Assembly: GCA_030682385.1 (NCBI GenBank)
Contig: JAUXOG010000138.1
Coordinates: forward strand, 1 to 64,000
DNA length: 64,000 bases
From: Bacteroidota bacterium
Lineage (GTDB): Bacteria > Bacteroidota > Ignavibacteria > UBA10030 > BY39
Direction: 5' to 3'
Below are positions 61,540-63,614 of the stretch, one piece after another. The translations under genes were made by a program, and so were the position numbers. Below the pieces are notes generated by a model. That model had not been told where the DNA came from. It searched no databases and saw only the letters and a program-made list of their open reading frames with translations. Numbering within the stretch: position 1 is the first letter of the stretch; the number at the start of each line of letters is the position of its first letter.

Positions 61540-62310
61540 TTAATCTAACTTACCAAAACTATTTAAATATTTTCCCCACTTACCAAAATCGTTCACACTA
61601 AAATGTTGTCTATCTTGATCCTTAAAAAAAGAAATCCCTTTAATAGATTCGCCCATTGTTTCAATAAACTCATTAACAGACAATACTAAAAAATGAGGTC
61701 TATCGTCATTATCAATTAAACACCAAATAAAAAAATGTATATTATCTCTAATTAAATCTTTGGGTTTCATATCTATAGCGTAAGTGTTTTTACTCTTCCC
61801 AGTTTTACTATTTATTTCAATTCGTGAGGACTTTACCTGTATAGTCCTAAACTTAGTTACATATTCCGTAGAGCCGCATTCACAGTTATGCTTAATCATT
61901 TTTACTTCGCCTTTACATTTATTGCAGGTAGGTCTATTTACCAAATTTTTATTACCACAACTTAAGCATTTTGTCTTATTACCTATCATTTCTTTTTCAC
62001 AACTACTACAGATTTTCTTAGCAATAATATCCTTCTTTAAACTTTTTGAAAAATCTTTTTTACACGATTCGCAAACCAACTGTGGGGTGTGTTTCCAAAT
62101 AATACCACAATTTTTACAAACATATTTATGTATTATCGTATCAATATATTCATCATAAACAGGGCTATAAATATTCCAACCATGTTTAGATAACTCAAAA
62201 GAAACTAGAAACTCTCCATATCTTGAAAAGTGTTTTTCGCTTAAATCAGAGACACTTTTCCCTTCGCCCTTATTTAATATTTTCTTTTTCTTGGTTTTCT
62301 TTTTTACCAT
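61540..62310 (-). CDS. Putative PD-(D/E)XK restriction endonuclease with three embedded zinc ribbons
   Basis: A 256-residue protein starting 2 bp after the methyltransferase stop. The nuclease fold is split: GEFLVSFELSKHGW (Glu33) and YDEYIDTII (Asp53/Asp57), then after a 95-residue insertion TIQVKSSRIEI (Gln158, Lys160) and MKPKDLI, the pattern of Holliday-junction-resolvase-like/DUF4365 nucleases. The insertion carries twelve cysteines as CxxC pairs at 65/68, 80/83, 101/104, 115/118, 129/132 and 143/145 (the last CxC), enough for three four-Cys zinc ribbons. The Lys-rich N-terminus may bind DNA. I infer it is the R subunit of a type II system; no database family is recalled with this layout. 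Confidence 0.65.
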   Translation of the reverse strand: MVKKKTKKKKILNKGEGKSVSDLSEKHFSRYGEFLVSFELSKHGWNIYSPVYDEYIDTIIHKYVCKNCGIIWKHTPQLVCESCKKDFSKSLKKDIIAKKICSSCEKEMIGNKTKCLSCGNKNLVNRPTCNKCKGEVKMIKHNCECGSTEYVTKFRTIQVKSSRIEINSKTGKSKNTYAIDMKPKDLIRDNIHFFIWCLIDNDDRPHFLVLSVNEFIETMGESIKGISFFKDQDRQHFSVNDFGKWGKYLNSFGKLD

Positions 62311-62312
62311 TT

Positions 62313-63614
62313 CTAATAATCCAGTTCCGTAATCTTTATTTTTGCATCAATTTTCTTATTAATATTAGCTATTATTGATTTTTTAAATCTTTCCTTATTA
62401 AGTTCTATACCTATCCCTATTCTACCCAATTTATTTGCGACAATTGCAGAGGTAAAACTTCCAGCAAAAGGATCAAGAATTAACTCGTTAGGATACGAAA
62501 AAAAATTAATAGCCATCTCGGGGATGTCTTCTGGAAACGGAGCAGTATGTCCTAATAAGTTTTCTCCTTTACTATTTATTTTAATGACTGGTGAAAATTT
62601 TATAATATCTCTCCTCCATTTTTTTATAATATCCAAATTAATAACATTACTGTCATTTTGTCCTGCTTGAGTAATTATTGATTTCAGGGAGAATCTCTTC
62701 CCGCGATTACTTTTACTCCTAATAAAACACTTTTCATTTTTACATTCCCAACTCTGGATACCCACTTCTGACTGTGTATTTCCATTAACTTTTAATGTTC
62801 CACAAACAGGACATGGGAAACGCGTCTTGTCGAGTCGATGTTTATGAAAAATTAATAAATGTTCATAGCAATTCATCGGATACTGATAAAAAGGATATGG
62901 CGTGCTACCATTTTTATGTCTTTCGCTCTGGACCTCACCTTTATCCCATATAAAATCATCGACAAAAGTAAAACCTACTTCTTCAAAAATCTTGATAAAA
63001 TATGCACCTAATGGTAACCGCCTATTCCCCCAAACAGATTTTGTTTTAATATTATCATTATCAAATATATCGCCAACGTTAAATACAAATACTCTGTGAT
63101 TATCTAAAACTCGATATGCTTCTTCAATTATTTTTCTCATATCTTTTAGATATTCTTCTAAATTCGACCAATTTGAATAATCTCTCGCATTATAATATGG
63201 TGGCGATGTTACCATAAGATGAATACTCTCATGGTCCATCGACTTTAAAACATTATACGCATCTCCCCAGATAATTTTTATACTACTATCTTCTTTACTA
63301 ATAAATTCAAATAGGTTTTTGTCTCTGTGTTTGTTGCTTCTTTGATAGATTTCTTTAGCAAATAAGATATACTGATTAACAAATCCAGCTATTATTTTAT
63401 CAGTATTATTAATATTTTCAATATACTTTATCCTACTATAAAATTCTTCTAACTGCCCATTAGTAAATTGTTGTTCAAGATATTTCTCACTAATGGATAA
63501 AATATTTTTAAGATAATTCTTTGGATTTAATTTCGATTTTATGAATAAATTATTTCTTACTTTCCCTAAACCTTCATCTTTTGGTAATCGATATTTTATT
63601 TTTTGCGCTAGCAT
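62313..63614 (-). CDS. Type II site-specific DNA methyltransferase, beta class
   Basis: A 433-residue SAM-dependent methylase. Motif IV TSPPYYNARD is at 136-145 and motif I DPFAGSFTSA at 381-390, the permuted order of beta-class N4-cytosine or N6-adenine enzymes; the SPPY form favours N4-cytosine but does not settle it. A zinc-knuckle in the target-recognition region has Cys268, Cys271, Cys291 and Cys296 (FPCPVCG, ECKNEKC). It lies directly upstream of the nuclease gene at 2 bp, the usual R-M operon. Its sequence looks more AT-rich than its neighbours, consistent with horizontal gain; I did not compute this. Confidence 0.88.
   Translation of the reverse strand: MLAQKIKYRLPKDEGLGKVRNNLFIKSKLNPKNYLKNILSISEKYLEQQFTNGQLEEFYSRIKYIENINNTDKIIAGFVNQYILFAKEIYQRSNKHRDKNLFEFISKEDSSIKIIWGDAYNVLKSMDHESIHLMVTSPPYYNARDYSNWSNLEEYLKDMRKIIEEAYRVLDNHRVFVFNVGDIFDNDNIKTKSVWGNRRLPLGAYFIKIFEEVGFTFVDDFIWDKGEVQSERHKNGSTPYPFYQYPMNCYEHLLIFHKHRLDKTRFPCPVCGTLKVNGNTQSEVGIQSWECKNEKCFIRSKSNRGKRFSLKSIITQAGQNDSNVINLDIIKKWRRDIIKFSPVIKINSKGENLLGHTAPFPEDIPEMAINFFSYPNELILDPFAGSFTSAIVANKLGRIGIGIELNKERFKKSIIANINKKIDAKIKITELDY

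What the first reader, a model, noticed from the sequence alone, without database searches (positions are those of the whole stretch)
61540..63614. Restriction-modification pair with three zinc ribbons inside the nuclease core
Seen: in a 256-residue protein twelve cysteines lie between the Asp and the Q-V-K halves of a PD-(D/E)XK site; the neighbouring methylase also has a four-Cys knuckle in its recognition region. Inferred: the ribbons form the nuclease's DNA-recognition module, matched to the methylase knuckle. I know no described restriction enzyme with this split architecture, so this may be a new type.
Basis: partly seen in the sequence, partly recalled or inferred. Interest (0 to 1): 0.72.

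Follow-up and report, generated by a model that had tools for sequence, protein, structure and literature searches.

The report
Zinc-ribbon restriction enzyme, predicted CCN7GG target
A bacterium carries a DNA-cutting enzyme whose cutting site is interrupted by three zinc-binding fingers, next to the enzyme that protects its own DNA; the pair belongs to an uncatalogued but widespread restriction family that probably recognises CC-seven-bases-GG.

Summary
In detail: nuclease 61540-62310(-) has E33, D57 and Q158-V-K160, with twelve cysteines (three C4 ribbons) between D57 and Q158. The methylase 62313-63614(-) is a beta-class N4/N6 MTase with a four-Cys knuckle in its recognition region. The nuclease matches no Pfam, NCBIfam or PADLOC family at cut-off. 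A scan using only the methylase returned 80 loci from about 20 phyla; 64 have a nuclease homologue within 750 bp. E33, D57, Q158 and K160 are invariant. Homologues carry 1, 3 or 4 ribbons, or one ribbon plus a separate, catalytically dead three-ribbon paralogue. AlphaFold gives a PD-(D/E)XK core (closest: I-Ssp6803I) with the ribbons on the beta2-beta3 hairpin. The methylase recognition region is nearly invariant, and the same methylase is sometimes paired with BstXI-family enzymes. Host genomes avoid CCN7GG, the BslI site: it is the most depleted of 224 bipartite palindromes in two hosts (0.44 of expected). BslI is the only described enzyme I know with this target plus Zn(Cys)4 motifs, but its sequence could not be compared. 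I conclude this is a real Type II system, a new single-chain variant of a BslI-like kind. Using the ribbons for recognition is inferred, and so is the target of the window's own copy.

The parts
61540..62310 (-). Predicted Type II restriction nuclease, 256 aa
   Evidence: 64 of 80 methylase loci have a homologue within 750 bp; AF2 pLDDT 88.6
62212..62214 (-). E33, helix-1 glutamate of the active site
   Evidence: invariant 64/64
62140..62142 (-). D57, PD-(D/E)XK aspartate at the start of strand 2
   Evidence: invariant 65/65
61876..62118 (-). Three C4 zinc ribbons (residues 65-145) inserted in the beta2-beta3 hairpin
   Evidence: Foldseek matches one ribbon to ribosomal protein eL40
61831..61839 (-). 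Q158-V159-K160, second half of the active site
   Evidence: Q and K invariant 66/66
62313..63614 (-). Beta-class DNA methyltransferase, 433 aa (Pfam N6_N4_Mtase, 7.3e-35)
63195..63209 (-). Motif IV TSPPY (residues 136-140)
   Evidence: sequence; invariant
62727..62813 (-). Four-Cys knuckle in the target-recognition region (C268, C271, C291, C296)
   Evidence: found in 81 of 83 relatives; TRD nearly invariant
62451..62474 (-). Motif I DPFAGSFT (residues 381-388), after the TRD as in the beta class

Best explanation
A horizontally acquired Type II restriction-modification system. The methylase modifies one base in each half of CCNNNNNNNGG (probably N4-cytosine, from TSPPY and the beta order). 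The nuclease, probably a dimer on this symmetric site, cuts unmodified copies with an E33/D57/QxK160 metal site. Its core has the I-Ssp6803I / PDDEXK_5 fold. The three zinc ribbons project from the beta2-beta3 hairpin beside the active site and most likely contact DNA or bridge the half-sites across the 7-bp spacer. Shown by computation: the pair, its conservation, the fold, the ribbon series, and avoidance of CCN7GG in hosts of relatives. Inferred: cleavage, zinc binding, the modified base, the target of the window's own copy, and the role of the ribbons.
For: Linkage: 64 of 80 methylase loci found without using the nuclease carry a nuclease homologue within 750 bp, most overlapping or within 25 nt. 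Catalytic residues are invariant. The ribbon-excised core hits PDDEXK_5 (0.0016, below its cut-off) and phrog_5018 (1.3e-8). AF2 pLDDT 88.6; the top PDB match is I-Ssp6803I, probability 1.00. Target: in 22 hosts, fixed before counting, CCAN5TGG (a subset of CCN7GG) has ratio z < -3 in 6/22 against 1/117 control genomes, Fisher p 5e-5; the BstXI site CCAN6TGG is not depleted, 1.01. CCN7GG ranks 1 of 224 in the L091 and L107 hosts, 0.44 of expected, z about -9. The methylase TRD is nearly invariant, so the same target is expected here. GC of the pair is 0.293 against 0.390 +/- 0.017.
Against: The window's own host shows no avoidance of CCN7GG (0.96), and three-ribbon loci only 0.81 (z -2.2) against 0.91 in controls, so the target of the three-ribbon form rests on TRD identity. 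The L089 host, with a methylase almost identical to that of L091, shows no depletion. Hosts sampled for one search were picked after seeing the first counts. Another system with the same target in those hosts cannot be excluded. Foldseek E-values do not reach 0.001.
Confidence: 0.72

Rival explanations
1. The family is simply the BslI family: BslI beta corresponds to the one-ribbon nuclease, BslI alpha to the dead three-ribbon paralogue, and the window enzyme is a single-chain member.
For: Target avoidance at exactly the BslI site. The review PMC4081073 gives BslI as CCN5|N2GG, alpha2beta2, needing Zn in Cys4 motifs. Split loci L122, L131, L132 show the two-protein layout.
Against: No BslI sequence was available. 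PADLOC, which holds many REase_II models, does not match the split-locus proteins.
Confidence: 0.6
2. The ribbons are structural or dimerisation elements and do not read bases; recognition lies in the C-terminal part of the nuclease.
For: Numbers vary from 1 to 4 beside an unchanged methylase TRD. PMC4081073 states that Cys4 sites in HNH restriction enzymes are structural.
Against: The array sits on the hairpin that carries the active site; the split partner is little more than ribbons on a dead core.
Confidence: 0.4
3. The target is the BstXI site CCAN6TGG.
For: Three genome loci and one viral contig pair this methylase with RE_BstXI proteins.
Against: CCAN6TGG is not depleted (1.01), while CCAN5TGG and CCN7GG are, also in the two BstXI-paired Pelagibacteraceae hosts.
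Confidence: 0.07
4. The nuclease is not a restriction enzyme but a repair, homing or modification-dependent nuclease beside an orphan methylase.
For: The closest solved fold is a homing endonuclease; ribbon-free solitary relatives exist.
Against: Constant overlap with one methylase, replacement at the same place by RE_BstXI enzymes, and site avoidance.
Confidence: 0.06

Closest known systems
BslI (Type IIP, CCNNNNN|NNGG, alpha2beta2)
   Same: Predicted target; several Zn(Cys)4 motifs; a split two-protein form exists in relatives; methylase matches a 912-position profile of the length I recall for M.BslI
   Different: The window enzyme is one 256-aa chain with all ribbons inside the catalytic core; sequence homology to BslI untested
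I-Ssp6803I homing endonuclease (PDB 2OST) / Pfam PDDEXK_5
   Same: Core fold and active-site layout (Foldseek probability 1.00; PF11645 at 0.0016 after ribbon excision)
   Different: No zinc ribbons, no methylase partner; the Pfam cut-off is not reached
BstXI (PF09552)
   Same: BstXI-family enzymes sit beside the same knuckle methylase in L087, L118, L119 and L044
   Different: Different protein family; no match of the window nuclease to PF09552; predicted site differs
DREN nuclease of SPARDA systems
   Same: PD-(D/E)XK fold similarity
   Different: Argonaute-associated; no methylase

Membership tests
Type II restriction-modification system | Nuclease gene constantly linked to a cognate DNA methylase | tested here: met
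   64/80 within 750 bp
Type II restriction-modification system | Site-specific cleavage blocked by methylation | not testable with these tools
   Indirect only: avoidance of CCN7GG
PD-(D/E)XK nuclease | alpha-beta-beta-beta core with E, D and (E/Q)xK in place | tested here: met
Pfam PDDEXK_5 (PF11645) | Score above gathering cut-off | tested here: not met
   18.9 bits against 26.1, and only after ribbon excision; no hit full length
BslI | Target CCN7GG | tested here: inconclusive
   Strong avoidance in one-ribbon hosts, none in the window host
BslI | Two subunits, alpha2beta2 | tested here: not met
   One nuclease gene in the window; split form only in L122, L131, L132
BslI | Sequence homology to BslI alpha and beta | not testable with these tools
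   No BslI sequence at hand; paper not held
BstXI (PF09552) | Match to RE_BstXI | tested here: not met
Beta-class N4/N6 methyltransferase | Motif IV (TSPPY), then TRD, then motif I | tested here: met
N4-cytosine methyltransferase | Modifies N4 of cytosine | not testable with these tools
   TSPPY suggests m4C but does not prove it

The most novel reading that the evidence does not exclude
One methylase with a fixed CCN7GG recognition module has, across bacteria and archaea, been paired again and again with interchangeable nucleases for the same site: PD-(D/E)XK enzymes whose zinc-ribbon array grew (1, 3, 4) or split off onto a catalytically dead paralogue, and unrelated BstXI-family enzymes. 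The window's form carries a complete recognition array inside the catalytic hairpin of a single chain.
Probability: 0.45. Interest if true: 0.72.

Novelty: new variant of a known kind. Interest (0 to 1): 0.6.

Why it matters
It defines a widespread restriction family, including many uncultured phyla, Helicobacter cinaedi and Campylobacter, that Pfam, NCBIfam and PADLOC do not describe. It predicts its target and gives a natural series of 1-, 3- and 4-ribbon and split enzymes. That series makes it testable whether zinc ribbons inserted in a nuclease hairpin are recognition modules, and how a one-chain enzyme relates to a BslI-like heteromer.

Tried and rejected
Searching with the window nuclease alone found nothing in 395 phylum genomes, viral contigs, plasmids or phages; relatives appeared only through the methylase alignment. 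The BstXI target CCAN6TGG was the first hypothesis and was rejected by site counts. Literature searches for methylomes at CCAN6TGG or CCN7GG and for zinc-ribbon PD-(D/E)XK restriction enzymes gave nothing relevant. PADLOC hits of the nucleases (PD-T7-4 at 0.0005 or worse, one REase_II at 0.0045) are weak and cover only the D57-ribbon stretch where I could see them. The PDB profile search gave only zinc-finger noise. CCN7GG itself is too short for the pattern search, hence the CCAN5TGG proxy and sampled stretches.

Full report
Observation. The nuclease has E33, D57 and Q158-V-K160, with twelve cysteines between D57 and Q158 in six CxxC/CxC half-sites. The methylase matches N6_N4_Mtase at 7.3e-35, has the beta-class order TSPPY, TRD, DPFAG, and carries a C268-C271-C291-C296 knuckle in the TRD. 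The pair has GC 0.293 against 0.390 +/- 0.017 for the window, the lowest there, which suggests recent horizontal gain. The window contig ends about 1 kb further on.

Family. The whole nuclease matches nothing above cut-off in Pfam, NCBIfam or PADLOC. With the ribbons cut out, the core hits PDDEXK_5 at 0.0016 and phrog_5018 at 1.3e-8. Direct searches with the nuclease were empty. An alignment of the methylase with a Staphylococcus phage relative found a viral contig, L043, with a 217-aa one-ribbon homologue overlapping the methylase, and L044, with a BstXI-family enzyme instead. A genome-collection scan with four methylases gave 80 loci from about 20 phyla including archaea.

Association. An iterated profile found a nuclease homologue in 65 of the 80 loci; 64 lie within 750 bp, mostly overlapping or within 25 nt. 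Of the other 15, two contigs end there (L093, L104), three have RE_BstXI enzymes (L087, L118, L119), four have a ~360-aa protein with at most a weak BstXI match (L105, L124, L129, L141), L101 has a second methylase and a DUF6997 protein, and five have no evident partner.

Ribbon series. E33, D57, Q158 and K160 are invariant in all aligned homologues. Three-ribbon enzymes like the window's: 14, one clade with 99.8% SH-aLRT support in a tree built without the ribbon columns. One-ribbon enzymes: about 40, including Helicobacter cinaedi L127 and Campylobacter L125/L126. Three or four ribbons on a longer core: six. A split form: L122, L131, L132, with a one-ribbon nuclease plus a separate protein of about three ribbons. 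Profile comparison shows that second protein to be a paralogue of the nuclease over the first helix to the ribbons (probability 95.7%), with the E33 and D57 positions lost and no QxK.

Structure. AF2 with 43 homologues gives pLDDT 88.6 and pTM 0.75: helix 25-42, strand 58-65 starting after D57, ribbons 65-145, strand 150-166 carrying QVK, then strands 173-181, 192-199, 205-211 and helix 212-223. The best PDB match is I-Ssp6803I (E 0.005, probability 1.00, TM 0.65 on the target), then SPARDA nucleases; one ribbon matches eL40. A one-ribbon model, L127, gives the same two fold groups.

Methylase. The TRD is almost letter-identical in all 80 aligned relatives; about 40 of 80 positions are nearly invariant, while the N-terminal region is only 20-35% identical. 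Nuclease kinds are scattered on the methylase tree: three-ribbon partners need at least 3 changes on starred branches, BstXI at least 2. On the nuclease-core tree the three-ribbon enzymes are one clade. Nucleases have therefore been exchanged between methylase lineages, which is easiest if all read the same site.

Target. For 22 hosts, fixed before counting, CCAN5TGG (inside CCN7GG) was compared with the same-phase spacer CCAN8TGG. Six hosts have z below -3, ratios 0.55-0.83, against one of 117 control genomes (Fisher p 5e-5; Mann-Whitney p 0.0005). The BstXI site CCAN6TGG against CCAN9TGG averages 1.01. Over the 80 loci CC-Nk-GG has its lowest count for k between 3 and 18 at k = 7: 801, against 990 and 963 at the same-phase spacers 4 and 10. 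In sampled stretches CCN7GG is the most depleted of 224 bipartite 2+2 palindromes in the hosts of L091 (110 against 251) and L107 (120 against 270), and third or fourth in three more samples. The window host (0.96), the E360 loci (1.02) and mixed controls (0.91) show little; three-ribbon loci show 0.81, z -2.2. The target is thus well supported for one-ribbon systems and inferred for the window through the shared TRD.

Known systems. CCN7GG is the BslI site. PMC4081073 describes BslI as an alpha2beta2 enzyme that needs zinc in Cys4 motifs. From memory, not tested: alpha carries two Zn(Cys)4 motifs and is thought to recognise DNA, beta cuts and has one more, and M.BslI is 2,739 bp. The window methylase matches a 912-position PADLOC profile at 3.4e-93, in an order that implies a tandem methylase, which fits M.BslI. 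The split loci look like alpha/beta, and the window enzyme like a single-chain counterpart with three zinc sites. I could not compare sequences, so I claim 'works like BslI', not 'is BslI'.

Mechanism. Best supported: a Type IIP enzyme, dimeric on CCN7GG, cutting with a D57/QxK160/E33 metal site, with ribbons contacting DNA or bridging subunits over the long spacer. That the ribbons read bases is plausible (they sit on the catalytic hairpin, and a split-off ribbon protein exists) but not shown.

Verdict. The 'new type' claim is reduced to a new variant, with an added prediction of target and evolution.

Noticed in passing
L087, L118, L119, L044: The same knuckle methylase is paired with RE_BstXI enzymes; two such Pelagibacteraceae hosts avoid CCAN5TGG (0.55) but not CCAN6TGG, so these BstXI-family enzymes may not have the BstXI site.
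   Followed up: partly
L105:5236-6336, L124:2871-3965, L129:2876-3949, L141:5283-6443: A ~360-aa protein family beside the same methylase; one member weakly matches the BstXI N-terminus (0.0045), the others match nothing in Pfam: likely a further restriction enzyme family.
   Followed up: partly
L131:2958-3602, L132:2990-3643, L122:5235-5960: Separate ribbon protein that is a catalytically dead paralogue of the nuclease, next to a one-ribbon nuclease: a probable heteromeric enzyme.
   Followed up: yes
L061, L062, L063, L065, L069, L070, L075: Solitary ribbon-free relatives of the nuclease core (130-167 aa, phrog_5018) in unrelated genomes, with no methylase; function unknown.
   Followed up: no
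genome G079: A control genome with very strong depletion of CCAN5TGG (186 against 389), suggesting a PflMI-like or BslI-like restriction system there.
   Followed up: no
L171-L190 (host of L120): GCN7GC (0.62) and CAN4TG (0.74) are also strongly avoided, suggesting further restriction systems in this spirochaete.
   Followed up: no
L032:4974-5903: A Staphylococcus epidermidis Sepunavirus carries a related knuckle methylase with no nuclease beside it, perhaps a counter-restriction methylase.
   Followed up: no
L101:5291-7427: In a Methanophagales archaeon the knuckle methylase is followed by a Dam-like methylase and a DUF6996/DUF6997/DUF7226 protein, possibly another nuclease kind.
   Followed up: no
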